Positions 12,201 to 46,000 of a DNA stretch of 64,000 nucleotides are shown here, piece after piece. The first letter of the stretch is position 1. Each line of letters starts with the position of its first letter. This DNA comes from Schistosoma haematobium (lineage: Eukaryota > Platyhelminthes > Trematoda > Strigeidida > Schistosomatidae): assembly GCF_000699445.3 (NCBI RefSeq), contig NC_067196.1:85364364-85428363 (forward strand). Reading direction: 5' to 3'. A program made the translations under genes and the position numbers. Below the pieces are notes generated by a model that was given only the letters and a program-made list of their open reading frames with translations, searched no databases and was not told where the DNA came from.

Positions 12201-15200
12201 ATATGTTTTTTGATATCAGATAGCTCAGTGGTAACGTCTCTGGCTATGAAGCACGGTGACACGGGATCGAACCCGTTAGGGAGCACCAGTCCACTCAAAA
12301 TCACAGGTACACTTTGCTAACGAGTGCCAAGTAGCACAAAACCCGGGTCCAGGGTTTCCTGTCTACTACCTCCAACCACCATCTAATCTCAATATATAGT
12401 GCACGCAGTGTCGGGTCACTTAAACTGATCGATAGCAATCGATCTGCACTAAATAAGGACTTGATACACATGAGATTGATCACCACCCAGTGATCGATCA
12501 ATTGTGATCAGAGAATCAATCTCTTACCCATGCATTATGAAGCAATCAGCTATATCTCAATGTATATTTTTATCTTGGTTGTTCAACTCTCTGTTACTTA
12601 AACTTCAATTCAATAATAAATTAATGCACTTCTATAGCAAATTTAGTCATCGTTTTTGATGGATCTTATTAAATATTAAACCGATTTATAGAAAAACCTC
12701 CTGGAGCCCCTCTGGGGCTACTGTTTGTCCCAAGCCCGGATAAAGGAGGAGAATTGGGTATGCGGTTAGTAACCCCATCCCGTAGAAGATTAACTTGCTA
12801 AAAAACGCTAGCCAGGAAAATATTTTAAGTAAGGATTTATAGAAAAGGATATAATTTGAATAAGAAAGTTTGAAAGGTGTTACAATTTAATCAATGCTAA
12901 CGGTTAAACATATAGAATGTGAGACAAAACTATTAAACAAACTACTTAATTATTGTTTCAGTAGACTGAGAAAGAAATCAGAACCTTAATCAACTTTCAG
13001 TTTGATTTCCAGTTAAAAATAATATCAATCCATTTAATTAGTGAGATATATGCAAACCCTTACTACTCTTTTAGACGATGCTTAGGTGGTAGAATTATTT
13101 GGCCAAATTTTTAAAGAAGCATGTACACTTAAAGTGGTTTTACTGCTTCGAAACTTATTAGATGAATGTAAATGTATTTGAGTAATGGTTCATAACATGA
13201 GATATCGATATCACTCTCATATTATTTAGGATAATAAAAATGATTAAGTTTACACTAACGATAAAACTAAACGACAAAGATAAGATGAAGGATAATTTTG
13301 TTGAAATCTAGGCAGTAAAATATGTAAGAATGATCAGAGAAGGGTTTTGTGAATATTATAGTAATTTGATAGTTGAATTCATGAGTCAATCAATGCTAGA
13401 CCACCATGGGAAACTTGGAAAACTGGAAAGCTGTTTTGTCATAGTGTGTAACTCCACAGCAATGCGCACCTCGCGAGATTCAAAAATCTATTCTGAATAG
13501 TGTTTTATTCCAATTTCGGTAACATTATAATTTATCAACGATATTTGAGCGATGCACTGGTGACCTTAAGAATGTTCACCTACTTACTATAGCTAAATGA
13601 GTGTTATAAATCTGTGTGAAGAATGAAGATTATGATTTAAAAGTGATGATTAGAGTTAGGAATTGGATTTGTGGTTTTAATCACGAACCGACATTAGCTT
13701 AAATAACAAAACACTATTTAGACAAATGAATAAATGAACTTCACACCAAAATCCTTAACCTGTGATCTTAAATCTGATTAGTTCGTCCATAAATTATAGT
13801 CTCAGCTAAATGACAGTAAATATGATTGAGTAAATGTTGACAGTATTTGTTTTTCTAAGCAAAGATGGGTAGTAGCTAACGGTGTAATCCAGGACGCACG
13901 TTTCGTTCTATTAGGGACTCGTCAGCTGGACGTACCTACATCTCAGAGTTGATGTTCACTCTGGTACACGAACCCCGTACCATTCGCTTCAAACGCCATC
14001 ACGTTATCTACATAGCTACTGAGTCCTGATAGCCCTTTGCTTATAAAATGGGGTAAAGTTTTATTCACTTTGTGTTATTTACTTGTATCTTCCGATTGTT
14101 ATTTACGACTGTAATTGATCAGTCTCTTGTTGGTATATGTGTATCTTGTGCGGATTGCCTCGATACTGCCTAAAGTCACAAGCATTATAAGCAAAGATTT
14201 ACTTTTATTGAAAAGCATTTCAAAGTTTCTATTAAAAATAACAACAACTATGCTTTCACGTCAATTTATGCGACATCAGTTTAAATGTAGGCAGAAATCT
14301 ATTTTATTTTGATTGTGTATTTAAAAATAAAATCAGGGTCAGTAAACTACTTTGTATAAAGTAAAATTGTGTAGATAAATAAAATTTATTTTTGTTTAAA
14401 TGTTGACATTCACTAAAGATTATCTAGATCATTCTGAACAATTTAGACAAGGAATTGACACAATGTAATGCTTCTAAACGTATCTAGGGATTATCGCAAC
14501 AATCCACTGTGTCTTCTTTTTTTTGTTTTGAATTGGACAATAAATTATCATCAAAATAAAAGAAAGCATGTATATTTAAACATTAAACTATCTAAATTCA
14601 CTTCGCTTTGTTTAACTGTATCTTTCCATTTTTAGTTAGGACTGTAATTGATCAGTCCTTTGTTGGTATATGTTTATCCTGTGCGGACTACCTCGATATA
14701 TCTCAACTCTGAGACGCAGGTACATCTAGCTGAGGAGTCCGAAATAGGATGAAACGCATGTTCAGGATTCTACTGTTAGCCACTATCTATCTTTGATTAA
14801 AAAGCTTGTGACTTAAGGCGATATCGAGACAATATGCACAGGATACACATATGCTAATAAGAGACTGATCAATTACAGTCCTAAACATCAATGGGAAGAT
14901 ACAAGCAAACAATATAAAATGAATTTACAATTAATTATGTTTCAATTACATTCAACTTACATTAGCTACAATGGATATAATTTGTAAATTAGTATCAAGC
15001 ATATTATCAAAATTCACTGGTTCTGTCCAAGGGCTCCATAGTTGATGTTCTAAAACTAGTACACGCAAGCTAGAATCAAGTAAACGAAAGAAAATGCAAA
15101 AGAAAATAAGTTGATTGAATAGCATTTTTCAATATCAAAATTGAACATTGAGCAGTAAAAGTTCTATAAGAAAAGAGAACTTTAGAAGTAACTACAGTTA

Positions 15201-18200: not shown

Positions 18201-19056
18201 TAATTCCTTTATTCACTATGCGATTCAAGTTGATGAAAATATACAAGAGTTGGAGGCATGTATATTTCAATAACAACCATCATACGATCCAATTAGTGTC
18301 AGACTTATCAGTATGGGGTTGTGGGGATAATTAAGTTTTTGATTGAGATCATGAACCGATTTATGTCAAACCAAAACTGGAAACCTGGAAGTACTAGACG
18401 GCTATTTAGTCCTGTTGTGGGACTCCTCAGCAGTGAACGTCCACGGTCCCACCTCGCGTGATTCGAAACCATGGTCTTCGGTCTTGCACGCAAACACCTA
18501 ACATCTAAACCACTGAGTTGGCATTCAACAGTATAAATGTCTAACTTCAACTAATCCACGAAATTGCCCAACCATCTTCCATTGTACTCAGTTAGATACC
18601 TGTCTCTACCCAACACCGATTAGCTCCACCGACCACGCTGATGTCAGATTTCGTGGTGGACAATCTTATAATCATCACTTGTAGTGATTATACTAGTTTG
18701 AATGAATTTTCAAAGTTAATGTTCATTTATCTCATCCATTATTCAACTGAAATGCAGTTAAATGTTCAGTCGAATTCAAGGAGTACAACTACTCCGAAAC
18801 TTTATATATTACTACAGTGTAATATTATTATTATTATTTTCATCAATGAATATCAACTGAATAAAACATCTCTTAGTATACTCTTCCCACCATTCAGCAT
18901 AGTGATATTTGTTCATTAATTGTTCAAATATGAAGTTAACAGAATGTTATGATTTATTTAAGTTGGTTGGATTTCTGATGGTAACCTTTAGGAGATAAGA
19001 ATCATTAGCACCGTTTTAGTTGATCATTTGAAATGAAGTAAATATTGGGTAGATGT

Positions 19057-19112
<56 letters not shown>

Positions 19113-22100
19113 CTATTTATAGCACCTCAATAAGTAGAAAATTAAAATTTTGTCATTTGTTTGGCTTACTTCTTCAGAGCATAAATAATCGAAACCGGAT
19201 ATTAATAAATTTATCATATATACTATTAATATAAGTGATAAATGAAGGTAACCAAATGAATCTAATAATTTGTAAATAACAACACTTCATTGAAAGTAAT
19301 CGGATATGAATAAGAGGAATAGAGATGAAAAAGTTGTTATAAAGCTTTATTAGAGCTTTATTCTCGTCATATTTATGTGATCATAGAATGTTTTATACTT
19401 TTAATGAAGTTTTGTTCTTTGAGCTGGTTAGTTTGATCGACCATCTACCTGAACTACAAATCTTCTCTACTATATCAAATGTTTGATACTTTAATAACAA
19501 AAAAGATCTACAATTGTGAATGTAATAAATTAAGTTATTTGAACAATGAAAAAGGTATAAATTATCATAGATTCTCTATACTGAGATAAAACGGTTGTCC
19601 AATGCTTCCAGGTTTTCCATGATAGTCTAACTTCAATTGACTTATGAATTCAGTTATTAAAATTCTTTATTTGTCCAATTTACTCCGAAATTAGATTGTC
19701 CCTTAGACGTATTAAATATCAAGTAGCCAATTATCTTCAGGTACATTTTTGTATATAAATATACAGTTTCTTATTATTCATTATTATAGGCATCACATAT
19801 AATGAAATTGTATATATGTTTAGATTTAAATAAAATTACTTATGGTGAATACTACAAGGTGGATTAACTGTCATGCAATCATGATATTCATTGTTCAGTC
19901 AGTTTAGTAAATTTAAAAATGCACTCTTACAAGTTATGATTTAAGTGATATACATTGAGGAAATCATCAAACTTTATCACGAGACAAGCGTTAACTTGGA
20001 ATCCTGAAAGAGAAAGGCTAGAGAACACAGTGCACCGAAAATTGGAAGCAAATATGAAAAAAAAAATCGAGTAGCAACTGGAAACAACTAGAAATGATTG
20101 TTCAAGATAGAGTTGGATGAAAAATGCTGGTTAGCAACCTATGCTGCTCTATGAGGAATAACAGGCATAAGTAAGTAAATAAGAATTGGACTTCCGTTCA
20201 CCTACTTATGTTTGACCAGTTAAGTGATCACATTGAATCCCTTCTTTTAAAAAAAAACCGGTATGTCTCAAAAGTGTATACATGAACTCTACTAAACAAA
20301 AGTATTTCAATGTACTTTTATTGAATGCAAGTTTTAAACATCCTAGTAACTAAATAACAAAAATCTTGTAGGTATATGTATAGATTACCTTTGATTTGTG
20401 GTTTTTCATTATGATGAATAGTTTGTTTTAAAACTAATTCATTTTCACTTCTTTTAATAGGTAATTCATATTTACTATGAATTTCTGATGGAATAGATGA
20501 TAATGATTTAGCCATAAATGATTCATGTTTCATAAGATTTTTATGTGTATCATCATCATTATTTGATTCTGAAAAATGATAACAGTATGACAATGATTGC
20601 GTGCAATATATATACATATCAAATAAGAATATTATCTATTCGGACAAAAGAAAAAGTAAATTTATGGTAAATAAAATGTCCATTAAATAAGAATTTTCTA
20701 AGTATTATTATTATTGGAAGGGGGTTTTATGAAGATTATAGTCATTTAATAGTTGAGTTTATAAATCAATTAAAGTTAGACCAACATGGTGGTCTAGAGA
20801 GAAACTGTGACAAGTGGAGTTTAACTGGATATGTTGTGAGTTAGTAACTCACTGATGACAATGATGGACGTTGGCGCACTTTAGTGGATTGGTTGGAGCT
20901 AGACATTAACACCGTTAGATACTGGCTTAGTGGTCTGGAGGCTAAGCGTTCGCGCGCGAAACTGATAGTTCCTGAGTTCGGATCCTAAGAGGCGGGATCG
21001 TCGGTAAACACTGCTAAGGAGTCCCATACTAGGATGAAACGACCATCCAGTGCTTTCAGATTTTTCATGGTAGTGTATCTTTAATTGACTCATGAATTCA
21101 ACTATTGAATGTTATAGATTGAATTAGATTGAAAAAGGTCAGTTATTACCTATAAATAAGCTATAATGAACAGTCTGATAATAAAGGGACTTCATTATAT
21201 TTAGTCGATATGTATTTGGGAATTATAAATTATAAATTCAATGAATAGATGAAAGCAATTCAATTTGTGATTATATGTAAGATTTTTGACTTATTCTGGT
21301 GATGAAATACTCAATCCCTCACTGGACCTTAGTTTACTATTGATCTTTCTATTGATCATTATAGAGCCATTGAAATATCACTGAGCCGTATCCCAATCAT
21401 CCAGCAGTTGGGTCACTGAATATCGAACAGATAATCGATCCCTGTCAAGATCAAGGACATCCAACACGCATCAGTTAATCGTACACTATGGACTGGCACA
21501 TGCGGTGGTGGTCTTACTACCTTCTATGTACTCATTCTTACTAATATATTTTCGTAATAACTTCCTTTGTGTTATACGGTCTTCAAAGCAACTTTGATAC
21601 ATCGAAGGAGTAATCCACGTTAGATGCTGACCTCGAAGTGTGAGTTCGAAGTTAGCTGCTGGTCACACAATTCCTGCCTAACTCGAGTAAGCCCCCAGTC
21701 ATTCAACATAGATCATCTACGTTAGTGATATACACAACTGTTCAATCTTAACTTATCAATTCGATGTTCAGTGTTGAAGAATTCACTTACCAATTATTAG
21801 TTGAAATCGTTGTTCACCTAAAAGTTTTCCTGTTGTTGTATTATAAACTCTAAAACAAAGTAGAAAAATTACACTCTTACAATCAATGACAATTCATTTA
21901 TATAGATTACATTACATTTGAAAATGAATGTCTTGAATGCAAGTTTATTTTTTTTTAAACGGAATCAGTGAGAGATAAATAAAATTCATGTGTACAATGA
22001 TGAAACTTCAAAAGTGAAATCTGTAACTTATCACTGGGGTTTCCCCATGTGGGTCTGAATCCCGTCCCTGTCGCTAGTTGTCATATCTACAGCTTTAGAT

Positions 22101-25100
22101 TCTTAATATACCGCGTACAAATTGAGCACTCAAACGCTAGAACCTTCCCAAGTCGCAAATGAAGAGACAGAAGACAAGTGAAGGGATTGTTATTCCAAAT
22201 ATTGTCAACTATGGTACAAAACTGTCAGATATTTATAATTTTTAGTAAAAAAAACGAAATCATCATTATAGTCCTCCTATTCGCATACAGGGGGTTATTA
22301 ACATTTGTAAACGTTTATGTCGTCAGGTTATTGATGTCAAGGACAGTAATTAATCAGTCTATCTTTTCGAATGTACATACTGTAAAAATTGTCTCGAAAT
22401 TATCAGGTAATAGGTGAAATACATAAAGTATATTTCATTCTCTTGCTAATTGAGTGTAACTAAATCCTAGTGTTTGTGTTCACATTGGGAATCAAACCAT
22501 ATATTTATGATCTTACTGTAAACTATGATAAGAAACAAATACTTACAAATTCAATTCACACTTGTTGCACAAGTCAGTATCTATCTTGACTTAGTAGATC
22601 AATAGACAGCGCGTTAAGCGTTTAAAGTGAATAGTAGTGGTAATATCATCTTTCCTTTGCGACACTAATAGATCTTTACAATAATTTCTATAAATTCACT
22701 ACATTTTATTGAATTATTAACACTAAAGCGAGTTTACATTATGTTACCATTTAGATGCAACTCAAATAATCTCATGTTGAAACGGAGAATTAAATTAGCC
22801 ATCAACAGGACATTTCATTAGCATTTGTAGTATTGTAAAAAAAACCTTCAAGGGAACATACTAAGGTTTATTGAGGCCTTGACTGTACGGAAACTGAAAA
22901 CCTTTCTATGTATTCAAAAACAATTTGTTCTAAATATCAGACGGGGTTTTGTGCATATTATAGTGATTTTAATAGTAGAGATCATGAGCCAATTGAAACT
23001 AGACCACTATGGAAAACCTAGAAGTATTGGGCAGTCGTTTCGTCCTACTGTGGGATTCCCCAGCAATGCTCATCCACGATCCCACCTTGCCAGGACATAT
23101 CGGTTCTGCTCACGAACACCTAACCTCTAGACCAGTGAGTCGGCATTGAACGGTGTCAATGTCTAACTTCAACCAATCCATGAAATTGCGACACCGTCCA
23201 CCATTGTCATCAGTGAGTTATTATCTCACAACAGACCCAGTTGAATCCCACTTGTCACAGCTTCTCACTAGAACTCCAAGGTATACCTCTTGATTAAGCG
23301 CTCGCGCGCGAGACTGATAGGTCTTGGGTTCGAATCCCACGAGGTGAATTCGTGGATGCACACCTCCGAAGAGTCTCATACTAGGACGAAACGGCCGTCC
23401 AGTACTTCCAGGTTTTCCATAGGGATGTAGCTTTAATTGACTCATGAATTCAACTAGTAAATTATTAATAAAATTGTTTAGTATTCAACTGAATATCCAC
23501 ATTAGCCTATGAACATTTGACAGTTAATATATTTTGATTCTCAATAGGATGATTGAATAATGCTCTATTATTAAATGTTTCAGTTTAGAAGTTTAACAGT
23601 GTTTTATGTTAACTCTGTCTTATTTGATTGCTATACATTCATGAATTATTACTATGATTTTCAATGATTACAAACTTAGTTTATTTGAAAATCTGTCAAC
23701 CGGTAATTTTTTTTGTTTAAACTCGATTAACTTAGTCAAAATTATTAGACCATTTCATTATTGTTAAGTATACATATGATATATGTATATATGGATGACT
23801 CAATTAGTAAGTGTATTCCATATATAGATAGAATCTCAACTATTGACATTACTACAATCTCCACAATACCCCTTCTGATATAAATATGAATTTGTATTTG
23901 TATATTTATTATTTCTGATATAGAATATCATATTGATTCATCAATAATCATATAGTAATCAATCATTTAAGAACAAAGGATGTGTTTTAATGAAGTTGCT
24001 ATATTATAACAGATCTATAGACCTTGAGTTGGGTTACATATATCTACAAAGAATTGTTTGTTGTTTAACATGAAATTACTTCACTTCATGTGATGATTTT
24101 AGTTAGACGAACTTCATAGACCAGAAAACAGTGAATAATTGTTTCTTGTCAAACAGTGTGTAGCGTGGGTTATTATTTTAAGCCCATGTACCTTATTCTA
24201 GGTTTCAGCAGGCCATTTGATTCATTTTACTTGAGTCACATTCTGACCTTGTTGATTACTCGCTTATCAATTCTTGACTGTTTTTATATGAGCGCGTAGG
24301 TGTGTGTACATTTCTTATCCCATTACTCATCACATATCTGTAACTTACTTTTGTGTAACTATAATTATTGATTAACGCTTGATTAAATGGGAGTTGGCTT
24401 ACCAGCCATCTCCACTCTGCGTCGTTTTGCTTCGTTCTATTCCATTTGCTTTACATACAAAAATACGTGTCCATTCTCGTTATTCGACTTATTCAATTCC
24501 GTTATTGACTAACGTGATTTAATTTGATAATTATATACGATGATAGGCGATGACATGACATTCATACGATCTAATTGGAGTCAGATCTCGACCCACTAAA
24601 GTGAAGATTCCTTTCGACAACATCGTCCGATCTAAATAAGGACAAAATTATGGGCCCCACTAAAAGTGGACTCGTAGACCCATGATTAGTAGAAATTTAG
24701 GATACTCAGAACTCAAAGCATGTCTAAAGTTTCCATTGATTAGCTGTAACTATCAATAGTTTGATATGCTATTAATTATATCTATAATCAATAGACAAAC
24801 CCACTTATTAAATGGATATCTATTCGTTTTATCGCCTATATATTAATATGAAATGCATTTCTTTCATGATATAGCACATTCAAATCGATCTCAACCCATA
24901 AAATAACGGTAAAAATATTAAATTATTCGATCACTTACCTACAAATATATTGACCATCATCAGAAATTTTTCTAGGATTAACAATACTAAGTATTTGTGT
25001 ATATTCATTCACATTACTAATAATATATTTAATTCCACCAGATGCTTTATTAACTGATTCAATATTAAGTGGTTCATTTGATGTGACACTACGATACCAT

Positions 25101-27864
25101 AAAATTGACCATTGATATTGATTATTTAATTGATTAATATTTTGAGAACTTTCAATTAAAAGTAATGATGATAGATTACAATTCAAATGACCAGTTAAAC
25201 CTTCAGCGGTATGCTCATAAATTGTTTGGATTTGTTCATCAGTTTCTAAAATAAATATGAATGGATAATAATACGTTAAATATTGTATATTGAAACATCT
25301 ATATGAGATTAGATGGTGGTTGGAAGTAGTCGACAGGAAACCCTGGGTTTCCTATAGAGATCGAATCCGCCAGGGAGCACCAGTTCCTTCAAGATTACAG
25401 GTACATCTTGTCGACGAGTGCCAAGTAGCTCGAAACCCGGGTCCAGGGTTTCCTGTCGACTACCTCCAACCACGATCTAATCTCAATATATAGTGCACGC
25501 AGCGTCGAGTCACCTAGACTGGCAGCCACATTGCAACATGATCAATAGCATTCGATCTGCACTAATAAGGACTAGACACGCATGACACTGATCGCCACCC
25601 AGTGATCAATCAACTGTGAAACATCTATATCGTACATAATTTATACGAATCCTTATCATTCATATCAGAAGTGCTTTTGTGGGTATTAAAGTTATTTCAA
25701 TTGCTGAGATCATGAGTCAATTGAAGATAGACCATCATGGAAAACCTGGAAGCATTGGACGACCGTTTCGTCCCCAGCAGTGCGCATCAACCATCCCGCC
25801 TCGTGTGATTCGAACACAGATCTATTAGTCTAGTGCGCGAGCACTTAATCACTTGTTATGATGGATGTGATGTACAATTTCACGATATATTTACAGTTTC
25901 GGTAAAATAGGATTGATAATATTCCTAGAATATAGTGAATTCATTACATTTCACTGCTATTTCTTCAACTACTTACTATTTCCTTTTTATAAGTAGTAAT
26001 GAGAGTCAAATGAGACTACTGATAAATTATTCAACAAAAGATCTGTAATCAGTTAAATCAGTATGTGTTTTTGTTTATAACGTGTTCCTTATTTTCAGAC
26101 CAAATTAATTTCCTGACAAATAGAAAAGTAGAGAATTTTTAGACTGTATTTTACCGCCAGAATAGTACTAAATCGATTAAATTAGTATTCATATTTCAGT
26201 TTTTAATAAATTGTAAGGTAAATACTTTTATTGATCCCTTAAGAATGTTTACTATTGAAAGAATGTTTTAGAAATCTTGCTACCGATACGCTTAAACTGT
26301 CTTTGTAGCCGATTCTGATATCCACAACTACTTCTACATGTCAAATGGAACACTAAAGAGAAAGAGTGATATGCAAATAAAAGCTTTACTCTAGGTTTAG
26401 TTCATGTACAGAAAAAAAAGTAGGTGTTTATAGTACTACACCTAACCTTGGAAATCTAGATATTTCTGCAACCATACTAATATGGTAGCCCTATACATAA
26501 ATATCCAGTTAAAACTGTGACACGTTATTCTGTATATTTTAGATGTTTCTGTAACTATTCTATTCAATGTTGATTGAATAAAATGTTTTCAAGCATTTCT
26601 GGGCCTCTAAGGACTTGATAAAGAATATTTATAGGACTCATTCAAAAATTTGGTTAGGATTCGTTTATATATAATGTTAGTAAGCATCGTTTATAAATAG
26701 GTTTACAGAATAATTCACAACTATTCGTTAGTCGAATAATCATTATCATATCATTTCTAATGGATGAATAGTTAAGTCGATTTACTTAAGTTCACTAGTG
26801 TATTTTTGAAGAGTAGCCTACAATTTTCAAACTATAAACTGACGTAATTAGTTTGATGTTTAAACATTTATAGAATGCTCACTTGGATAATTAGGGAGCT
26901 ACGAGAGTTCCTAATGGATCTTATTTCTATACTAAAACGTATCAATGTTTTTTATGTACGATTGACATTTAAGATGAATTAGAATCAGATAGGGGTTTTG
27001 TGGAGATGGTAGCTATTCAATAGTTGAATTTATGAGCCAATTGAAGCTAAACCACCATGGTAAACCTGGAAGCACTGGACTGTCGTCTCGTCCTAGTATC
27101 GTACTCCTCAGCGGTGCTCATCCACGATCCCGCCTCGCGAGGTCCAAACCCAGAACCTATTAGTCTCGCGCGCAAACGCTTAAGCTTTAAGCCACTGAAC
27201 TGGCATCTAACGATATTAACGTCCACCATGGTTTTCCATACTGGTCTAGCTTCAATTGATCCAAGCTCATAGCTTCTATTTGGCTTGATCTTGTAAATAT
27301 GTTATTTCCTATTTTGTGGTGTGATGAGGTCTGTTTGGCTGATATATTAGCCAGGTATGTTTGAAATAAATGATTCGAATTGTGGGAGCTATTATTGGCA
27401 TTCTGAACTGAACTGAATGGGCTAGGCGAACATAGGACCAATAAGGAGGCTAGGCTGCTCAAACCGGTCGGACATCATTGGTTTGGCACAGTACTAAGAT
27501 TGAATAAGTCGTATTTGGATTGGCAAATAAATCGCCGGGCTTAAAACACGCAACAGTTATTCAATTGAGATGAGATGGCAATCGTTCACAAATCGTTAAC
27601 AATTTAGGAATATCATTCATTTTTTCATCTTAAATAAATTAATCTTGATTTCGTAATCTATCACAGTTGAAGATATTTTTGGAATAAAAAGTAACGCATT
27701 GGCAACAATGAAACTTTAAATGCTACACTTAGCCTATTTTTGCTAATTACTTAACGCAGATTGATTTCATTGACTATGATCTTGTCATTAGTAGATAATG
27801 AAGGCATCTTCATTAATTGATAAACTGTAATATGGGGAAAGGATACAATATGTGAACATTGAAA

Positions 27865-27924
<60 letters not shown>

Positions 27925-30900: not shown

Positions 30901-31009
30901 TTTTGAATTATTAACACGTTTATTAAAATCCCATTTATTCCATTCATCAAGTGTTGGTAACATTGGAAATGGTATTTTATACTTATTCATTATATTACTG
31001 TTTTGTAAT

Positions 31010-31049
<40 letters not shown>

Positions 31050-34000
31050 AATTTAAAGTAACTTGTTTTCCACTTTCAGTAATAATCACTTTTGGATTTA
31101 ATGAAATGGTTATTGGTGACCCTTAAAATAAAGCAATAATAATAATAGCAATTATAGTAATGATACATTGAAATAATTCTAATGGAGTTTTGTTCTCTGA
31201 CAGTTCTATTGTACGGAGCTGAAATGTGCAGAACTACTACAACCACCATCAAGAATGTACAACTATTTATAAATAGTTGTCTACGCAAGATACTCAACAT
31301 CCATTGGCCGGATATCATCAGTAACAGCCTAATGTGGGAGAGAACAAACCAGCTTCCAGATGAACAGGAAATTAGAAAACGACGATTGAAATGGATAGGA
31401 CATACACAAATTATCAAACTGCATCACGAGGCAATGCTAACTTGGAATCTTGAAGGGAAGTCGAAAATAGGAATGTCAAAAACACATTACGTCGGGAAAT
31501 AGAAGCAGATATGAAAAGGATGAATAACAAGTGGAAAGAGCTGGAAAGGATTGTTCAGGACAGGGTTGGATGGAGAGTACTGATGGGCGGCCTATGCTCC
31601 TTCACGAGGAGTAACAGGCGTAAGTAAGTAAGTTTGTTCCCTGAGGTAGAAGTTTGTGCTGGTTATGTCGTTCAGAAGTACGATGAAAGCTCTACGATCA
31701 AGTGATCGAGCTCACAGAACAGAACTCCATCAAAATCATCCACCTGAGCTATAAATCTTCTCCAACATTAAAATAATACTTACATTTTAATAAAAATGAA
31801 TAATAAAACAGACGTATTCATCCCTGGAGTAATATTTTTTTTGAGATTCTTGTTCATTTACGGAGAGAGAAAACATTAAAAATGACCTTTCAATCAGTGA
31901 ACAGATAAATTTTATTATTGCTAGTAAATTACATGGTAAACTATTGAACAGTGTTACTGATTAAATTCACCTAATGTTGTTTTGCTTGTATCTTCCCATT
32001 GTTGTTTACGACTGTAATTGATCAGTATCCTAGTGGCATATGTGCATACTGTGCATATTATCTTAATTCCTAAGCATTCTAAGTAAACATGAATAGTGGC
32101 TTACAGTGGAATTCAAGACGCGTGTTTCGTACAGCACTGCGTTCGAGTCTTGTAGTAGACATCAATTCTGAGATGCAGGTACATCCAGCTGACGAGTCTC
32201 AAATAGGACGAAACGCGCCTTCCTGATTCCACTGTTAGCCAGTATTCATCTTTGTTTATAATTTTAGCTTTTAACTGAATAACACCTTTGAATCTCTGAT
32301 GAAAATGTTCAACCAGTTAAACATTTGTTAAAAACCTAGAATATTTATTGTAACTAGTGTATGGGAACCAAAACTGTGATGACATTTTAAAATGTTATAG
32401 TATAAATGAACAAACATAATTTGAAAATACACCATTTAATTTATGTGAAACTAATTTATATAAACGGCCTATGCTTCTTCACGAGGAGTAACAGGCGTTT
32501 GTTTCAAATACCATCTCATTATCCACTTAGCTACTGAGTCTGCACGGGATGCATGTATGCCATTAAGGGACTTATCAATTGCAGTCCTAAGCATTAATGG
32601 GAAGATTCAAACCAATAATACAATATATGTATGTATAGTTCATGAAGTCATCTAATGCCGAACAAAAAATTACATAACGCATGAAATGATATTTATAAAC
32701 ACAGAATAATGTATATTGCGTAAGCATAAAATAAACCGATAACTACACTTGAATCGTATCAAAAAATAATGACATGTGTACATTAACCGAATTTTGTAAT
32801 CTGACGTTTAAGGAAATTGTAACCTATGTGATCTCAAAGTCATCCTAGATTAGAAAAGAAGTGGGATTTGTCATTTTGGAACAGAAGACTTCGGTCAGTT
32901 CTAATCCACATAGTAACTGCTTCTACTATTTGAAATACTGTAGGTCACGTCGCTTTTTACAACCTGATTTTATGGCTAGTTTGGACCTAATTACTTGCAC
33001 CTGTTACTCCCAATGGAGCATAGGCCGCCGAACAGCATTCTCCAATACACACCGCCCTTGGACTTCCTTTCCACTTCTATCCAATTGTTGTTCATTTTTC
33101 TCATGTCTGTCTCCGTTTCTCGGCGTAATATGTTTATTCGTCTTTTTCTTCTCCTTTGGCCTTGGGGATTCCGCGTGAGAGCTTACCTTGTGACGCAGTT
33201 GAGTGTTTTCCTCAATTTGTGACCTATCGACTTCCAGCGCTTCTTCCTGATTTCTTCTTCCACTGGGATCTGGTTTGCTCTCTCCCACAGTAGGTTGTTG
33301 CTAATAGTGTCCAGCTATCGGATCCGAAGTAGGTTGCGTAGACAGCTGTTAATAAACACTTGTATCTTCTGGGTGATAGCTTTTATAGTTCTCCACGTTT
33401 CTGCCCCATGTAGCAGAACTGTCTTGACATTTGTATTGAAAATTTTGACTTTTGCTGTTGGTTGACAGATATTCTTTGATTGTAGATATACTGCTCTTGC
33501 TTTACCGATTCGCGCCTTCACATCTGCATCAGATCCACCGTGCTAATCAATGTTGCCCTCCAGATATGTTAAGGTTTTCGCATCCTCCAAACTTCTTCGT
33601 GAAGTGTGATTTGATTGGTGTATGCTGTGTTGTATCGGAGAATCTTGCTTTACCGTTTGTGTATGTTTAGACCTACTACTGCTGAGGCTTTTGCTACACC
33701 AGTCCTCTTCTTCTGCATTTATTACTGTGTGTGAGATAGAAGAGCCAAATCATCTGCGAAGACTAGATCATCTAGTTCAAACTAGCTAAGCTAAATTAAA
33801 ACCATTCAGATTTTAATTGCACACTATTATTTTAAATGATGGGAAATGATTTCAAATAGATCTTCATATTCAGTGTATATTTGTTTGTATGTGTGTAGGT
33901 ATTATAGTGAACAAAACACCAGTGGGGACAATCTAATGTATTTGACATTCAATTACAGAGCATCTTAATAAAATCTGAGAACCATATAGTAAATCGTTAA

Positions 34001-37000: not shown

Positions 37001-40000
37001 TCTACCATAAGTTGAGGAACGGGTAGTTATTTTTACATTTCTCACCTGCTTCAGCAGTAAAATGTGATGACCATATCATCAAATTCATTGGGCTATGCAA
37101 TACCTTACGTTTTTGCATATTGTAAATCAAAAATTCCTATCAATTATGACTCATATGAAATTAAATGATAAATAAGTTGATTTCAGTAGATTCACGGTGT
37201 TCCACGGCTATCATCCATTTGCATTTTCTTGTCGATTGTCTACTGCAAACTATTAATTTTAAGTGTTCGCTTTATACCGATCACATTTTCGTAGTCACAT
37301 ATGAACGCGTATATGCAATGAACTTTGTTAATGAGGACGTAATCAGATTTTGGAAGGATCAGAAGAATAAAACTTTGAATTGATCATGGTTGTTTATCTG
37401 ACAATTATGAGAATATAAAAAAACTTTTTCAAGTTATAACTATTCTGACTTAAACGTTCAACAGGTGTTTACGAGTAGATTTCTTCATGAACAGACATTA
37501 ACTACATTCCGTTGACCAAGATATATCTTCATTAAGAAACCTGATGGCTCTAGATCAAGTAAAATGAAGTCACCGCTATACACTACTGATGAGTTCATAA
37601 TTACCCAATTTACCCATTTCAACTTTTGTTGTTTTCTAGTTTCGCACCTAACCCAAACGACAATCCACAAGTATCTTACTGCCAGAATCATTCCTTAGGT
37701 TCTTATTTGTAGTAGTGACTGGTGGAGTTTAAATATATCGGTAGTGAGACAACTATCATAAATAGGTTTGAATTATAGTCTTTTAATATTAATATTCGTA
37801 CGAAGCAAAACAATTGGATAGCTTGATTCTAAATCAGTAATATGCAGATTTCAGGTTCCCTACCCTCCATCCCTTAGCCCGAAGGTGTTGTGATCGATCC
37901 ATAAGAGTGCTGTAGATTTACACCACTGAAGAATATCATGGTAAGAGTAAACACATATTTTATGCTCTTTGATTCTGAATAGTAATACAACCGATTTCAA
38001 CCTATAAATGATATAATCTATCGACATTTTATTCATAATACAAAAAAAACTGCCTATACAAATCAATAATTTAACTACTTTTCAGTATATTGCTCGGAAT
38101 CTAATATCCTATTTTTTTGTTTGGAAATAATTCTGAAGTTAGACATTAACATTGTTGGATGCTGGCTCAGTGGTCTAGTTGGTTAAGCGCCTGGCGTGAG
38201 ACTGATAGGTCCCGTGTTCGAACCTCACAGGGGACGAGGTCGTGGATGCGCACTGCTGAGGAGTCCCATACTAAGACGAAACGGCTGTCCAGTGCTTCCA
38301 GGTTTTCCATGGTGGTCTAGCTTCAATTGACTCATGATCTCAACTGTTGAAAATAATTTTCTCTTTTTTTCATTAATGACATCAATAACACTATAATGGA
38401 ATGTAATTAAATTATGGTAGATATACAACTCTAAGTCTATTTAGTTTTTTTTTCGTGTAAATATTTCAATCATGCCAATGTCTATTTACAATGACGTAAC
38501 TCTTGCATATATACTGTAATGTTTATTTTCATTTGTCTAAATAACTTGATATAATTTATTGGCTGTTGTTATGTATATTTTACTGGATATTTAAGTGAAC
38601 AATTTATGAATACTATCTTATCAAGAATATCGTCGAGTTCATTGACAAGTGTACATAGAGAAATGAAGCGATTTGTTGAAAAATGAGAATCTAGCATCTT
38701 TCATATACATAGTTCTCTTTAATCATTTTGTAAAGAGAAAGAACAAATATTCTAGTACAGTAATATGAATTCATTTTATTTCGTTTGGTTCTTATCAGCT
38801 GATTACAACCTGTGTGATATGTTTGAATGCTATTACGAGTTCACCTTACTTGATAAACGGAACAAAGGTCATAGATACAGTGACATGATAGGCTATTCTA
38901 ATCAGTTGTCCCCAGCCCTGTTAGCTAGGTCAAGAAGTCTTGATGAGGCTTAGAGAATGTATTCTACAAGCACCCATAAAATACGAGGTCACTAAGCACA
39001 GAAATCAAGCTTATTTATACAATGATAAAAACGTCCATGGGAGAGCCACAAAATAGTATACGAAAAAAATCCGTCAACCAATGACAGTCAAAGATTTCTG
39101 AGTGGAAAATGTAAGCTATAGGTCAACTAAGCGTCTATTGGCTTAAAAACATAAAATTCAAGATTTCAGAATAAAATTACAAAATTACGACCTTTTCCAA
39201 GTGAGTTCTGAGGATCTAACGTCCTCAACACTGTGATATTTGAAATCATAATTACATAATGGGTTTAAATTATTTCCATGAAAGTGTTTAGTCGGAAGTT
39301 ATATTGAAGACATATTCGTATAGTATGACAAGGATGTAAATAAATTGAATAGATTGAATATTGTAAATATATACCTTATGTGAAAGAACATTCTATAATA
39401 TTGATTTTGACAACAGTTCGAAGGGCTAGAAACAAGTGATTACATAATGAGTAAACATTGATAGGAATAAAATGAATAGAGCTTGTTTGATAAAATAAGA
39501 CATCTAATATGGAAGATAGTTGAATTAAAACTCATTAATGTAATAAATGCAAGAAAGAGTTTAGTGAAAAAAAAGTTTATTTTGCTAGAGACTGATATCT
39601 AATCGGCTTTCATTTATGTTTCGTTTAAGTTTTAAATGACCTAACGTCTCATTGTCAGTTTGATTATACTTCTAGAACATCATGCTCATTTTATTGCACT
39701 TTTTAACAGAAATTTAGGTCATATTCATCATATATTGATCTCATGTAAAGTATCATTGAAGATTAGAAAACTTGAGGTAGATATTTCTTCTTAGTACATG
39801 ACTCTATAGTGATGTAAATGAGCTATTAAATCAGTAATTGAATTCAGGACCTTGAGGTCTCATGAAGAAAATTCAATCATTTTAACTACTGGGTTAGTTT
39901 TCAGTCATGAAATTTCATTCAATTTACGATATATCACGGTAATTATCTATTTGAGTGCTGACAACCGTTTTGTTCCATAGAAGTGCTAGAACTTGTAGTG

Positions 40001-43000
40001 TCGGTTATTATGTTAAGCCCATATACCTTATTCTAGATTTCGGACAGCCCATTCTCTTCATTTTACTTGAGTCACATTCTGACCTTGTTGATTACTCGCT
40101 TATCAATTCTTGACTGTTTTTATATGAGCGCGTAGGTGTGTGTACATTTCTTATCCCATTACTCATCACATATCTGTAACTTACTTTTGTGTAACTATAA
40201 TTATTGATTAACGCTTGATTAAATGGGAGTTGGCTTACCAGCCATCTCCACTCTGCGTCGTTTTGCTTCGTTCTATTCCATTCGCTTTATATACAAAATA
40301 TATGTATTCACAAGTCCATTCTCGTTATTCGACTTATTCAATTCCGTTATTGACTGACGCGATTTAAGTCGATAAATATATACGAGGATAGGCGATATAT
40401 ATTTCAACAACAATCATTATTACATTCGCCTTGGAGTCAGATCTCGGGCCACTAAAGTGGAGAACCCTTTCGACGACATCGTTCGATCTAAATGAGGACA
40501 AAACTAAATAATGGGGGCCTCCACGAACTATACAATTCATAAATATATTTTTTTTCTATTGTCGATAACTATTTCATAATAAAAAAGTAATGTTTTGAGA
40601 TTTATAATTTCTCTAAATATCATTCTGAAGTATTAACACTGAGAATATGAGTTGACTAAACTTTCTATACTCAAATGTTTGTACTTTTAAGTGAAGGGGA
40701 CTAAAAACTGAGTAGTAATTTTCGTTCTGCTACTTTTAGATATCTTACAATTCAGCTTTTAATCCCACTTTTGTAACATAAATCCATTTTTAATGTGATA
40801 TACAATCCAGTTCAGTAATCTCATAAAGCAATCATTATAACATCGGTTTGGTCGCATTGGATTAATTGAGGTGTAAATATTAAAATAATAGTGATCATGG
40901 AGTATAAAGTTCATTATAAGATGATTGATAAAATGTGTTTATCATTGGAAATCGTTTAGCTACTGACATGTATTATAAGAGTAAGGAAAGAAGATAGAAC
41001 TTCTCATGTAAGCTTATATGAATAGAGAAAAAATAATTATATGAGTAAACATTACAGTATTTACTATGATTTACAATGTGATTAGTGGAAATACATGTAA
41101 ATTACAAGGTCCACGATAATACTGTGGTGTAGAAGGTCACAATAAAAATGATTATCGTGACAAATTTAGTATATCATCGCTGAATAGTGAATTCTTCTCC
41201 TGTGGCACTAACTGACTCAAAAATTATTTAGATTATCAGTTTCTATGTTGTATCAAATATACAAGCGTAATTGGTTCCAACTAACTAGAAATTAAGACAG
41301 TCAATTATAGTGAGCTCTTCGAATAAATTAAATTTAATTATGGATGATACATTCTGGAGCCCATGTGCACAATTGGATTGGAATCAGGGATTTCCAACTC
41401 ATTTAAGTTAATACTCTATATCCACCAACCCGGTTGAAGCGCCGGATATTGGCTTTCTGTCCTCTCAATTTCGCAACCAACACCCCTGCCACAAGAAAGG
41501 CAGTGGGTATGACTTCCTTGACAGTGGTTATATGCACGTGCCCATGTGATAGCATTTCGAGATGGAGAGTTGATTCTCCCCACTCTCAGCCGTACCAAGG
41601 TATTTGGTGGCTGATTTGTGTAATAAATTACAACCAATGGAATTCATTGTTCTTAAAATGATCCCATCATATGGAACTCAAAACAACTTTCAGTCCATAT
41701 CAAAGTCAGAATCCTCAATACGAACCTCAAGTCAGTTCTACTGTACGGAGCTAAAACTTAGAAAACTACTACAGTCATCATCAAGAATGTACAAGTATTT
41801 ATAAATAGTTGCCTACGAATGATACTCAGTATCCGTTGACCAGATACCATCAGCAACAGCCTTCTCTGGGAAAGAACAAAACAGTTTCCAGATGAATAGG
41901 AAATTAGAAAACGACGATGGAAATGGATAGGACATACATTACACAGATTATCGAACTGCATCACGAGGCAAGCCCTAACTTGCGATTCTGAAGGGAAGGG
42001 GGAAAGAGGTATGTCATATAACACATTACATCGGGATATAGAATCAGATATGAAAAGGATGAATAACAACTGTAAGGAGCTGGAAAGGATTGTCCAGGAC
42101 AGGGTTGGATGGAGAATGCTGGTGAGAGGTCTATTCTCCTTCACGAGGAGTAACAGGCATCAGTAACTACACCATACATAAAAAAAAAACAAAAAAACGT
42201 AATTACAATCAATAGATTTACCAAATTTTTGATTAATTTCAATATTTTCCATAAATCCATCATAATACCAACGTGTTGAAACAACTGGGGCACTTTCAAA
42301 TATACAAAATAATGTTAAATTTGTATTTTCATTAATGTTGATTTCTTTAATTGTATTCAATGTATTATTATTATTATTATTATTGTGAATAGTTAAAGTA
42401 TTTGAATTGATTTCATTATTTGTATTATATAAATAAGATAAATCAGGATCATCTGATGAAAATTTTAAATGGGTCCAAATTTTTTCATTTGGTTCTATGA
42501 AAATTTGAAAGGAAAAAGAAAAAAGAAAAAAAAGAAAATTAAATGACAAAAATATCGATTGCTGGCTCAGTGGTCTAGTGGTTAAGTGCTCACTCGCGAA
42601 ACCTGTAGGTCCTGAGTTCGAAATTCGCAGGGGGTGAGGTCATGGATGCGCACTGCTGAGGAGTCCCACAATAGGACGAAACGGTCGTCCAGCGCTTCCA
42701 GGTTTTCCATGGTGGTCTAGCTTCAACTGACTCATGATCTTAACCATTGAAAAAATTTTTGTTTGTTTTTTTGGAAATTTTATGATGATAAATAGATATC
42801 GCAGATTGAAATCATGAGTCAGTTGAAGCTAGACCACCATTGAAAACCTGGAAGCACTGGACAGCCGTTTCGTCCTAGTATGGGACTCCTCAGCAGTGTG
42901 CATCCACGATCCCGCACCACGCGGGGCTCGAACCTAGGACCTACTGGCTTCGCGTGCGAGCACTTAACCATCAGACCACTGAGCCGGCATCCGACGGTGT

Positions 43001-46000
43001 TAATGTCTAACTTCAACCAATCCACGAAGTTGCGCCACCATATACCATTGTCTTCAGTGAGCTGATATCTCACAACAGACCTGGTTGTACTCCACTGGTA
43101 ATGGCTGTCCAGTGCTTCCAGGTTTTCAATGGTGGTCTAGCTTCAACTGACTCATGATTTCAATCTGTGAAAATTTCTAAAAAATCTCCACAAACCCCTT
43201 CTGAAAATAGATATCAATTGAAGTTGTTCATTTAATGTATAGTATGCTAATAAGAGACTGATCAATTGTAGTCGTAAAGAACAATGGGAAGTTTCAAGTA
43301 AATAATACTAAGTGAATTTAAACTTAACTTCTCATTACTTAAAGAAGTTGATATCAGGGTACAGTAGCTAAATGGACAACGCAATGGCATTTGAAGTGAA
43401 CGGTACTAGGTTGGAGTGTCAGAGTGAACATTAACTCTGAGATGCAGGTACATTCAGATAACAAGTCTCAAATTGGACGAAACGCGCGTCCTGGATTTCA
43501 CAGCTAGACACTATTCATCTTTGTTTAGAATGCTTGTGAAGTAAGGTAATATCAAGGCAATCCGTACAGTATGCACATATGCCAATTAGAGACTGATCAA
43601 TTGTAGTCACGAACATCAATGGGAATATTCAAGTAAACAAAACCAAGTGAATTTAAACTTCACCTCATTGTACAAGCAAGTGGCTATCAGGACTCAGTAG
43701 GTAAGTGGAAAATGCGATGGCGTTTGAAGTGAATGAACATTAACTCTGAGATGCAGTTACATTCAACTGATGAGTCTTAAATAGGACGAAACGCGCATCT
43801 TAGATTTCACTGCTACCCATTATCTATCATTTCTGATTTTTTGTTCCGAAATAGTAATAAAAAAGAGAAAAGTATATCGATTTAATCAACCAAAATATTT
43901 GAAATGAGTTAACCGAAAAATATAAATGTTATTTTAATATTAAATTGTACTTTAAAAACAAATAAAACTAGACAAGCATGACATTGATCACCACCCAGTG
44001 ATCAATCAATTGTGAAAACTAGTTTGCATTTATCATCCCATGGATGTTTACAATTGAGATTGATCAGTCTCTTGTTGACATATGTGCATTCTATGCGGAC
44101 TGCTTCGATATTGCCTAAAGTCATAAGCTTTATAAGCAATACAACTAGTTATCTGAAGATTGGTTCCCTTGTTTTCGGTTAGTGATGTTGATAGAGCTAT
44201 TTTTTTTTGTTTTGATTTGAACGTGAAATAACAGTATGGTATCAGTATTATTCAAGGCAGTTGGTAGTTATTATCACAAAAACTATAGGAGTTATTCATT
44301 TAGACAGCTATTTACTAAACAATGAATTGTCTTTGTTTTTATTCAACCCAAAGGTTTAGTTAACAACATTTTTGGTCATTATTATGTCTTCAGTTAAATT
44401 GCTTAAATCGGCTTCGATGAATGTACTTGGGTTTAAAAAACAATAAAAGATACGTATTAACGTAATCAGATAATTAACATCAAACTGATTGAAGTAACGA
44501 AGTAAATTATCAATTATTAATCTCTTTCTGTGAATATAACAATTTAGAAATTATGAATTGGTGTTTTTTAGATTATTAAATTGTTGGAAGTAGGAAGATC
44601 AAGATGTTTAATCGAAGTCCTCGACTGCTCTTTTGAGTTCTAACGAAAGACCAAGTTCTCACGATCAGACTTAGTCAAATCGTCGTAATCTATGCTTACA
44701 AACATTGAGTAACTTGGTTTAATGCAAGTGTCAGTAGTGCGGTTACATGTTCTAAGTTATCTTGGGCTTCGTGTGATTTAAAACCTCTCAATCTATGATC
44801 ACATTCATTTTCTTCTATATTGTATTTTTCATCCTTAAATTTCAATTTCAGCTGGTGTTATTTCTTACGTTTCTTCTCATTTCGCCAACATTTCAGTTGT
44901 TCCGTTTGTCAGACAAGGTTTCTTACTCTCCTCTTTTCTATTTGCTTTGGTGGATTATGAAGACCTCCATATTTGATGGGAAGCATGGAACATGAATGAC
45001 AGCTTTCATGCAACTAGACGACTTGAACTTCACAGATGACCTGGCCCTTTTATCTCATATACATTAGTACGGCAGAAACCTCTGCATCAGTGGACCTCAA
45101 CATGCACAAGGGAAAAAGCAAGGTCCTCAAATACAACACACAGAACACCAACCCAATCACACTTGATGGATAAGCTCTGGAATAGGTGGAACTTTCCACG
45201 TGCCTGGGAAGCATCATCGATGAACTGAGAGGATCTGATGCAGACATGGAGGCAGGGATCGGAAAAGTAAAAGTAGCATTTCTACAATTGAAAAAAATCT
45301 TCAACTCAAAACATCTGTATGCAAGACAGCATCAAATTCAAAATCTTCAATACAAACGTCAAAACAGTTCTACTGTACGGAGCTGAAACTTCGAGAACTA
45401 CTACAACCATCGTTAAAATCGTAGAAGTATTTATAAATAATTGTCTACTTAAGGTACTTAGTGTCCGTTGATCGAATAACAACAGCATCAGCCTACTGTG
45501 GGAGAGAACTATCCAGCTTCCAATTGAAGAGGAAGTCACAAAAAGACGATGTAAACGGATGGGATGTACATTAAGGAAATCATGATACTGCATCACAAGG
45601 CAAGCGCTAACATGGAATCCTGAAAGTAAACAGAAAAGTGGAATGCCGAAAGGCACACTGAGTCGAAAAATGGAAGCAAACATGAAAAGGATGAATAGCA
45701 TCTGGAAACAACTGGAGAGTCGATGAGACAGTTGAATGGAGAATATTGGTGGTTGGCATTCGTTCTTTCATGGGGGAAGGGGTTACAGGTGTAGGTAAGT
45801 ATATAAAGTGTTAACATGTTCATTATAGAATAACAGCGTTTAAAGTATAATAGTAAGTAATTAATTGTTCAGATATTACAGCGTGAGTAAGTAAATATAA
45901 CATTCACGAAACTGTTTTGTTTCTTGATGTAATTAGTAAATGATTAGGTGGGATCATTACAATTAATAAAATAATGTATAGAATGGGTCTACTGCTTCAG

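What the first reader, a model, noticed from the sequence alone, without database searches (positions are those of the whole stretch)
12218..43210. Three different tRNA-headed SINE families all carry a hammerhead ribozyme of the same design
Seen directly: alpha, beta and gamma repeats each have box A/box B-like heads, then CTGANGA, a 4-bp stem II, GAAAC, and a stem III that is a loopless palindrome (ACGCGCGT, ACGGCCGT, ACCCGGGT) ending in a GTC cleavage triplet, with a stem I whose 3' strand follows (CTGGAT, CAGTGC, CAGGG). The heads, tails and stem I sequences are otherwise different, yet alpha and gamma share the GGTACA internal loop of stem I. Known: Sm-alpha of schistosomes encodes active hammerheads. 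I do not know whether the beta and gamma ribozymes have been described. Inference: a hammerhead module is maintained or swapped between SINEs, and may process multimeric transcripts or make circular RNA.
Basis: partly seen in the sequence, partly recalled or inferred. Interest (0 to 1): 0.88.

Follow-up and report, generated by a model that had tools for sequence, protein, structure and literature searches.

The report
Hammerhead SINEs with Penelope-like insertions
In this blood-fluke-like stretch of DNA, three families of short repeats carry a hammerhead (self-cutting RNA) motif, the third only in two damaged copies, and their head-to-head double insertions suggest they were likely copied by Penelope-type retrotransposons rather than by the usual LINE machinery.

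Summary
Partly confirmed. Alpha and beta repeats carry clear type I hammerheads. Gamma shows the same design, but both window copies have a broken core, so its CTGANGA/GAAAC was inferred, not seen. Alpha fits published SM-alpha; beta probably corresponds to the W25.2-W27.2 hammerhead repeats of S. mansoni (unit length only compared). Structure is supported between families (covariation 0.391 against 0.231+-0.018 in shuffles), not within them. In beta, ribozyme stems and core diverge about half as much as head and tail outside CpG sites. The new point is insertion anatomy: same-family neighbours within 40 bp are 11 head-to-head, 0 tail-to-tail, 4 tandem. Four of the 11 head-to-head units, spread over all three families, lie whole inside one perfect 11-14 bp direct repeat, so each is one insertion event. 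An inverted partial copy inside one target-site duplication, tandem units and an optional ~30 bp tail are published Penelope hallmarks. I favour tRNA-headed hammerhead SINEs mobilised by a Penelope-like enzyme (inferred). The whole genome could not be searched; cleavage, transcription and partner are untested.

The parts
49252..49864 (.). alpha head-to-head unit: inverted arm 49252-49468, tandem main arm 49480-49864, flanked by ACACATACAGTA direct repeats; hammerhead match at 49786-49830 (+)
   Evidence: hammerhead
30308..30631 (.). beta head-to-head unit: arms 30308-30530 (-) and 30528-30631 (+), flanked by AGAAATGAATAT; intact-core hammerhead 30360-30422 (-)
42806..43204 (.). beta head-to-head unit: arms 42806-43099 (-) and 43100-43204 (+), flanked by AAATAGATATC; intact-core hammerhead 42847-42909 (-)
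25300..25619 (.). gamma head-to-head unit: inverted arm 25300-25346, main arm 25359-25619, flanked by TGAAACATCTATAT; inverted arm ends at the predicted cleavage site within 1-2 nt (C17 at 25443)
25396..25458 (+). gamma hammerhead copy 1, core TCGACGA (broken), stem III ACCCGGGT
12228..12515 (+). gamma repeat with box A/B-like head; hammerhead copy 2 at 12303-12365, core CTAACGA and AAAA (broken)
13853..14198 (-). alpha tandem copy; hammerhead 13887-13931 (58.5 bits, the best Rfam hammerhead match in the window)
43243..43837 (+). alpha tandem array; hammerheads 43452-43496 and 43761-43805, 309 nt apart
8918..9261 (.). alpha head-to-head unit (no target-site duplication found)
14593..14927 (.). 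alpha head-to-head unit (no clear target-site duplication)
31961..32262 (.). alpha head-to-head unit (no target-site duplication found); hammerhead 32183-32227 (+)
32503..32621 (.). alpha head-to-head unit, short arms (no target-site duplication found)
20722..21109 (.). beta head-to-head unit (no target-site duplication found)
22935..23467 (.). beta head-to-head unit (no target-site duplication found)
26984..27259 (.). beta head-to-head unit, second arm only 30 nt (no target-site duplication found)
42640..42702 (+). beta hammerhead with intact core
38240..38302 (+). beta hammerhead with intact core
5666..6049 (+). beta copy preceded by what looks like the tail of another unit, so a partial tandem
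3587..3746 (+). gamma 3' part only, ends at the common TTGTGA end

Best explanation
Three repeat families in this window carry a hammerhead ribozyme motif behind a tRNA-like head (gamma only in damaged copies), and they are likely non-autonomous elements that a Penelope-like reverse transcriptase copied into the genome, with the ribozyme predicted to cut their tandem transcripts into units. Shown by sequence: the motif, stem compensation between the families, slower divergence of ribozyme stems and core in beta, tandem alpha units, and head-to-head units of all three families lying inside single direct repeats that look like target-site duplications. Inferred: RNA polymerase III transcribes multimers from the internal boxes; two palindromic stem III arms pair so that neighbouring motifs act as a double hammerhead; the RNA is bound by a Penelope-like RT/endonuclease that cuts and extends both target strands from internal start sites. 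That would give two oppositely oriented cDNAs whose heads meet in the middle and whose tails face outward. The short arm often stops in the stem III-to-stem II part of the ribozyme, which I read as a block by the folded or cut ribozyme.
For: Hammerheads. Structure across families: 82.6% of cells paired against 72.8%, covariation 0.391 against 0.231+-0.018, reached by 0 of 500 shuffles, best slid control 0.127. Constraint in beta: non-CpG divergence of stems plus core 0.084-0.102, tail 0.159-0.169, head 0.172-0.244, loop 2 0.220-0.229; nominal permutation P 0.0059 (20 copies) and 0.0023 (13 copies with a head) against tail. Double-hammerhead dimer fold for one of two beta consensuses. Insertion: within 40 bp 11 head-to-head, 0 tail-to-tail, 4 tandem. 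Perfect 11-14 bp direct repeats at the ends of 4 of 11 head-to-head units; 300 random pairs reach 9 at the 99th percentile, and against 1000 random pairs with a wider flank the four score P 0.002, 0.005, 0.005 and 0.010. Beta ends fall mostly in two classes, q301-322 and q328-342. Published Penelope hallmarks: inverted pLTR adjoining direct pLTRs, 31-bp optional tail on one inverted pLTR, 9-bp duplication, head-to-head most frequent (PMC3846280, passages); Poseidon protein cuts and extends both strands and starts reverse transcription at two adjacent internal sites (PMC11167929, passages and part of the main text).
Against: No Penelope protein among the 45 ORFs scanned, so the partner is assumed to lie elsewhere. 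Target-site duplications in 4 of 11 units only; 3 of 24 other units also score 10 or more in the wide-flank test, two of them inside repeat sequence and one 39 nt off the boundary. The 40-bp limit was set: at 60 bp there is one tail-to-tail pair (P 0.006), at 250 bp three against 12 head-to-head (P 0.035). The control for other repeats is weak: self-BLAST for close inverted repeats found 3, all in these families, but it missed most of the 11 units as well. One arm with and one without the extra tail holds in 4 of 5 beta pairs tested by rule, of which one (60378/60585) has a 125-bp gap and is not among the 11, and 26984/27230 was not tested; P about 0.04-0.07 if all fitted. The rule and the BLAST ends disagree for 4 of 30 copies. 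Short-arm inner ends lie 1-14 nt 5' of the cut in 5 of 11 units and in none at the run-off base (post hoc). Within families, pair changes show no compensation, and across families the counts of doubly changed pairs and of pair types do not exceed shuffles. Counting CpG sites, the inner stem III of beta is as diverged as loop 2 (0.23-0.26). Gamma has no intact core. In the Anolis element, ribozyme mutants still insert (PMC11167929), and the rotifer paper prefers self-priming on an antisense template for head-to-head copies (PMC3846280).
Confidence: 0.58

Rival explanations
1. Ordinary tRNA-derived SINEs likely mobilised by a LINE (RTE or CR1 type); the head-to-head structures are twin-priming or template-jump by-products, and the hammerhead processes the transcripts.
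For: Heads match pol III boxes. Reverse-transcriptase fragments that I take to be LINE-type are in the window (RVT_1 in 1 and DUF6451 in 2 of 45 ORFs). Of 16 hammerhead-like small-RNA clusters in S. haematobium, 7 overlap SINE/tRNA and 2 LINE/RTE-BovB annotations (PMC5993326, passages). Twin priming can also give inverted arms inside one duplication, and gamma 25300-25619 fits it because its inverted arm starts internally.
Against: Plain twin priming splits one RNA between two arms, whereas in most units here both arms overlap in the element and, in beta, both run out to 3' ends. No LINE tail comparison was made, so this rival is not excluded.
Confidence: 0.24
2. The hammerhead is a passive relic: families spread regardless of it, and conservation reflects common ancestry of copies.
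For: Only 12 of 30 aligned copies have an intact core; no compensation within families.
Against: Stems and core diverge less than flanking parts of the same copies while loop 2 does not, and stem changes between families are compensated.
Confidence: 0.12
3. Head-to-head units are satellite or hairpin-mediated rearrangements after insertion, not insertion products.
For: Related repeats form long tandem satellites on the S. mansoni W chromosome (PMC8490949, sections 11 and 12 and passages).
Against: Four units carry one direct repeat around the whole structure.
Confidence: 0.06

Closest known systems
SM-alpha / Sj-alpha SINE-like elements with hammerhead (Ferbeyre 1998 and Laha 2000, neither held; known to me through PMC2770079, PMC8490949, PMC4918200)
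   Same: Alpha: hammerhead near the Rfam consensus (58.5 bits), tRNA-Gln(TTG)-like head, unit about 310-330 nt, tandem copies
   Different: Head-to-head units inside one duplication were not mentioned in the passages I read; no published SM-alpha sequence was available to align
W25.2, W26.2, W27.2 hammerhead repeats of S. mansoni (PMC8490949)
   Same: Hammerhead with very short stem III; unit of 399-428 bp against beta's 342-nt consensus plus about 60 nt that I read upstream in several copies; many copies
   Different: Sequence identity not tested; tRNA heads are not mentioned for these families (the word tRNA was counted 0 times in that text)
Metazoan non-LTR retrozymes (PMC7229834, PMC4918200, PMC7761336)
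   Same: Small tandem repeats with type I hammerheads, duplications longer than 4 bp
   Different: tRNA-like heads in all three families (in PMC4918200 a tRNA-Gln is the exception, in schistosome repeats); head-to-head units; circular RNA untested here
Penelope-like elements (PMC3846280, PMC11167929)
   Same: Inverted partial copy adjoining the main copy inside one short duplication, tandem units, optional ~30 bp tail (beta), hammerhead
   Different: No reverse transcriptase or GIY-YIG endonuclease encoded; tRNA-like head; hammerhead with loop 2 and stem I internal loop

Membership tests
Type I hammerhead ribozyme (RF00163) | Conserved core, three stems, NUH cleavage triplet (alpha, beta) | tested here: met
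Type I hammerhead ribozyme (RF00163) | Same, gamma copies | tested here: inconclusive
   27.6 bits for 25405-25449 (gathering 34), the other copy not listed; found by the alpha+beta model; core broken in 2 of 2
Type I hammerhead ribozyme (RF00163) | Self-cleavage | not testable with these tools
   bench test needed
tRNA-derived SINE | Internal pol III box A and box B | tested here: met
   relaxed ARAGORN also calls tRNAs but fires on 80 of 400 random pieces, so it is not used; ARAGORN at default finds none
tRNA-derived SINE | 3' end shared with a partner LINE | not tested
   no partner sequence held
SM-alpha | tRNA-Gln-like head, hammerhead, ~330 bp unit | tested here: met
   against descriptions read; not against the sequence itself
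W25.2-W27.2 | Sequence identity with beta | not testable with these tools
   no sequence held; only unit length compared
Metazoan retrozyme | Tandem units of 150-450 bp with type I hammerhead | tested here: met
   alpha; one partial beta tandem; gamma none
Metazoan retrozyme | Circular RNA intermediate | not testable with these tools
   no RNA data
Penelope-type insertion | Head-to-head inverted partial copy inside one target-site duplication | tested here: met
   4 of 11 head-to-head units
Penelope-type insertion | Optional ~30 bp tail on one of two arms | tested here: inconclusive
   4 of 5 beta pairs by rule; two end classes; alpha and gamma arms differ by about 110-125 nt instead
Penelope-type insertion | Encodes RT and GIY-YIG endonuclease | tested here: not met
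   no GIY-YIG hit among 45 ORFs scanned, and the repeats are too short to code for one: not Penelope elements themselves, at most users of one

The most novel reading that the evidence does not exclude
All hammerhead SINEs of this lineage are satellites of Penelope-like elements: a tRNA promoter plus a dimer-forming hammerhead is the minimal passenger that a Penelope enzyme recognises, and two RNAs held together through their palindromic stem III serve as the paired templates that give head-to-head insertions. This would name the missing partner of animal retrozymes and give the hammerhead a second, structural job in integration.
Probability: 0.3. Interest if true: 0.85.

Novelty: new variant of a known kind. 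Interest (0 to 1): 0.62.

Why it matters
A review states that animal hammerhead repeats show no motif revealing which autonomous element moves them and names Penelope-like elements as likely candidates because they co-occur (PMC7761336, passages). Head-to-head units inside single direct repeats, in three families with different heads, are structural evidence on that question and can be counted at once in any schistosome assembly. If right, these are tRNA-headed SINEs that do not depend on a LINE. I did not find this in searches, which cover open-licence papers only.

Tried and rejected
Within-family covariation as proof of structure: tested, none. tRNA identity by relaxed ARAGORN: rejected, 80 of 400 random pieces also score. 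Short arms as run-off ends of cleaved RNA: not supported, the nearest ends are 1-14 nt 5' of the cut rather than at it. Monomer minimum-energy folds: beta and gamma do not show the hammerhead as optimum, alpha shows stems I and II only; this neither supports nor refutes a tertiary-stabilised fold. A first divergence table had its regions off by one base and was redone. A Penelope or other ORF in the window: 45 of the 62 ORFs of at least 80 aa (low-complexity ones removed first; 17 left out, mostly overlapping ones) gave reverse-transcriptase fragments, an immunoglobulin V-set domain and weak single hits. Copies in IMG/VR: three exact-pattern scans, 0 matches. Extra model hits at 6421, 29147, 37910, 53478 and 11438 were examined as a possible fourth family; they look like single decayed copies, at least 29147 and 11438 beta-like by eye. 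A random-pair null also yields a few long matches because some pairs fall inside repeats (maximum 30), so duplications are judged on length and position together.
Full report
What was asked. The source is not named; I take it to be a schistosome because alpha fits the published description of SM-alpha (inference, partly recalled).

Observation. Rfam Hammerhead_1 reaches its gathering score at 12 places and is listed at 26 with E up to 5. CTGANGA-N5-30-GAAAC occurs 16 times against 0.89 expected in shuffles, 13 of them with hammerhead spacing. BLAST with family sequences gives 59 segments: 35 beta, 19 alpha, 5 gamma, from 3587 to 63986. Of 24 beta copies collected, 20 were aligned; 25848-, 15425+, 60600+ and 13468- were dropped for truncation or indels. 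Of 10 alpha matches, 8 were aligned; 8356 and 49397 were left out. Intact cores: 6 of 8 alpha, 6 of 20 beta, 0 of 2 gamma. Gamma was therefore not 'seen directly' as written: one copy reads TCGACGA, the other CTAACGA with AAAA. A covariance model trained on the 28 alpha and beta copies alone still recovers both gamma copies at E 2.1e-13 and 2.6e-10 (E-values rough), and at every damaged core position the other copy is canonical, so an intact founder is the simplest reading (inference). Heads: pol III box A/B at 1-2 mismatches of 18 in all three, against a median of 9 in random pieces (alpha and beta as consensus, gamma from its single head). ARAGORN at default settings finds no tRNA.

Is the ribozyme real as a selected structure? 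Within beta and within alpha, changes in stems are not compensated (81.9% of cells paired against 83.1% in shuffles; 85.4 against 84.8): individual copies decay freely. Across all 30 copies the picture reverses: 82.6% paired against 72.8%, 50 doubly changed cells against 24.2, covariation 0.391 against 0.231 with 0 of 500 shuffles reaching it, and at most 0.127 when partners are slid; the number of doubly changed pairs (9 against 9.0) and of pair types (23 against 21.8) is not raised. These are few independent events, fixed between family founders, so the shuffle count is not a probability. In 20 beta copies the non-CpG divergence is 0.102 in stems plus core, 0.169 in the tail, 0.244 in the head and 0.229 in loop 2; in the 13 copies with a head it is 0.084, 0.159, 0.172 and 0.220. 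With CpG sites counted, the CpG-rich inner stem III is as diverged as loop 2 (0.258 and 0.231). Columns and copies are not independent, so the permutation values (0.0059 and 0.0023 against tail) are nominal. Together this suggests that founders and active lineages kept the ribozyme while their dead copies did not.

Stem III. At consensus level it is a palindrome in each family. A hairpin without loop cannot form, so either two pairs with a four-base loop form, or two molecules (or two neighbouring units) pair through it. Cofolding the CAUACUA beta consensus gives the double hammerhead; the other beta consensus, alpha and the two gamma copies do so partly or not at all. Published dimer-active hammerheads in newt, axolotl and Penelope elements are the precedent (PMC6155905, PMC7229834, PMC7761336, passages).

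Insertion structure, the main new point. Neighbouring same-family segments within 40 bp are 11 head-to-head (5 alpha, 5 beta, 1 gamma), 0 tail-to-tail and 4 tandem (all alpha). The limit was set; at 60 bp one tail-to-tail pair joins (42560-42752 with 42806, sign-test P 0.006), at 150 bp the count is 12 to 1 (P 0.003), at 250 bp 12 to 3 (P 0.035). Four of the 11 units lie as a whole between perfect direct repeats: gamma 25300-25619 (TGAAACATCTATAT, of which the outer bases may belong to the element), beta 30308-30631 (AGAAATGAATAT), beta 42806-43204 (AAATAGATATC), alpha 49252-49864 (ACACATACAGTA). In 300 random pairs the 99th percentile is 9; in 1000 pairs with wider flanks the four have P 0.002, 0.005, 0.010 and 0.005, and the repeats begin within 3 nt of the right boundary and end within 13 nt of the left one. 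None of the other seven units, and 3 of 24 single or tandem copies, scored 10 or more there; those three lie in repeat sequence or off the boundary. A whole head-to-head unit inside one duplication is most simply one insertion event. Self-BLAST for inverted repeats with an inner gap of 150 bp or less found three, all in these families, although 37% of the window is repeated; since it missed most of the 11 units, this is a weak control.

Ends. Of 35 beta segments, 14 end at q301-322 and 16 at q328-342, the longer adding a block like TCCACAAAACCC; in the two units with duplications the extra stretch is about 33 and 37 nt (my reading). Under a mechanical rule, written after the BLAST ends were known, 15 of 30 copies are long (it differs from the BLAST ends for 5726, 42806, 51003 and 54178), and 4 of 5 pairs tested have one long and one short arm; one of the five, 60378/60585, has a 125-bp gap and is not among the 11, and 26984/27230 was not tested because one arm is 30 nt. 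The exception, 42806/43100, is called long by a match beyond that arm's own duplication, so by the duplication it would be short. In alpha 3 of 5 units pair an arm ending at q187-188 with one ending at q299-313. The inner end of the shorter arm lies 1-14 nt 5' of the predicted cut in 5 of 11 units, including the four with duplications (for gamma the match starts at C17 by my reading, one base earlier by BLAST); the other six lie at -109, -50, +11, +17, +58 and +74. Chance for 5 of 11 in a 14-nt stretch of 240 is about 0.0002, but the stretch was chosen afterwards. Since no end is at the run-off base, I read this as a reverse-transcriptase block near stem II or III.

Comparison. A rotifer Penelope element is described as an ORF between two pLTRs with an adjacent inverted pLTR completing the insert inside a 9-bp duplication, a 31-bp tail optionally on one inverted pLTR, and head-to-head as the most frequent inverted arrangement, which those authors explain by self-priming on an antisense template (PMC3846280, passages). 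Purified Poseidon protein cuts and extends both strands, starting at two adjacent internal sites whose interval is the 30-40 bp tail (PMC11167929, passages and second part of the main text). Two-strand priming would place tails outward and heads together, which is what is seen in beta and alpha; that step is my inference. A review and a curation guide already suggest Penelope-like elements as movers of animal retrozymes, the review noting that no motif shows the partner (PMC7761336; PMC8969392; passages). Perere-10 is the named Penelope-like element of S. mansoni (PMC8293314, passages).

What is known and what is not. Alpha is SM-alpha-like; its hammerhead and tRNA-Gln head are published (PMC2770079 passages, PMC4918200 passages and section 10). 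Hammerheads of W25.2 and W36.2 variants were shown to cleave in vitro, with orthologues of W25.2, W27.2 and W36.2 in the four schistosomes examined (PMC8490949, sections 11 and 12). Beta probably belongs there, since its unit length of about 400 bp fits, but no sequence could be compared. I found no description of gamma, nor of head-to-head units in hammerhead SINEs, in searches, of which I saw listings and the passages cited; five primary papers that I looked up are not held, so this is weak negative evidence.

Verdict. The hammerheads of alpha and beta are real motifs of a known kind; gamma is probable. The insertion anatomy makes a Penelope-like partner the best explanation (0.58), ahead of LINE mobilisation with unusual priming (0.24). 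Transcription, cleavage, circularisation and the partner enzyme remain untested, and all counts come from one 64-kb window.

Noticed in passing
697-774 (-): Rfam calls mir-3492 (52.7 bits), but the opposite strand, by my reading, encodes a reverse-transcriptase-like tail (...FTYLGSLISTNGLVSDEISARI...); the miRNA family may be a LINE fragment.
   Followed up: partly
42687-42862 (+): Weak MIR2646 match (54 bits, gathering 245) is probably explained by two beta tails facing each other (42560-42752 + and 42806-43099 -).
   Followed up: partly
29147-29209 (-), 11438-11501 (+), 6421-6482 (+), 37910-37972 (+), 53478-53539 (-): Very decayed hammerhead-like matches with the alpha+beta model (E 2e-7 to 5e-4); at least the first two keep a tRNA-like head by eye, so the beta lineage looks old.
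   Followed up: partly
beta heads, for example 30308-30530: The anticodon arm of the beta head is reduced to the near-palindrome CTCGCGCGCGAG without a normal loop; the surrounding sequence resembles tRNA-Pro (recalled), and about 650 of 951 tRNA pseudogenes of S. japonicum are reported as tRNA-Pro-CGG derived (PMC2770079, passages).
   Followed up: no
one of the 45 ORFs scanned, perhaps 24938-25351 (-), 30721-31122 (-) or 42163-42639 (-): An immunoglobulin V-set domain (Pfam E 6.8e-6) on what may be an exon of a minus-strand gene, which would place many of these repeats in its introns.
   Followed up: no
52587-53141 (+) and similar fragments: Fragments with DUF6451 (2 of 45 ORFs) or RVT_1 (1 of 45), probably LINE remains.
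   Followed up: no
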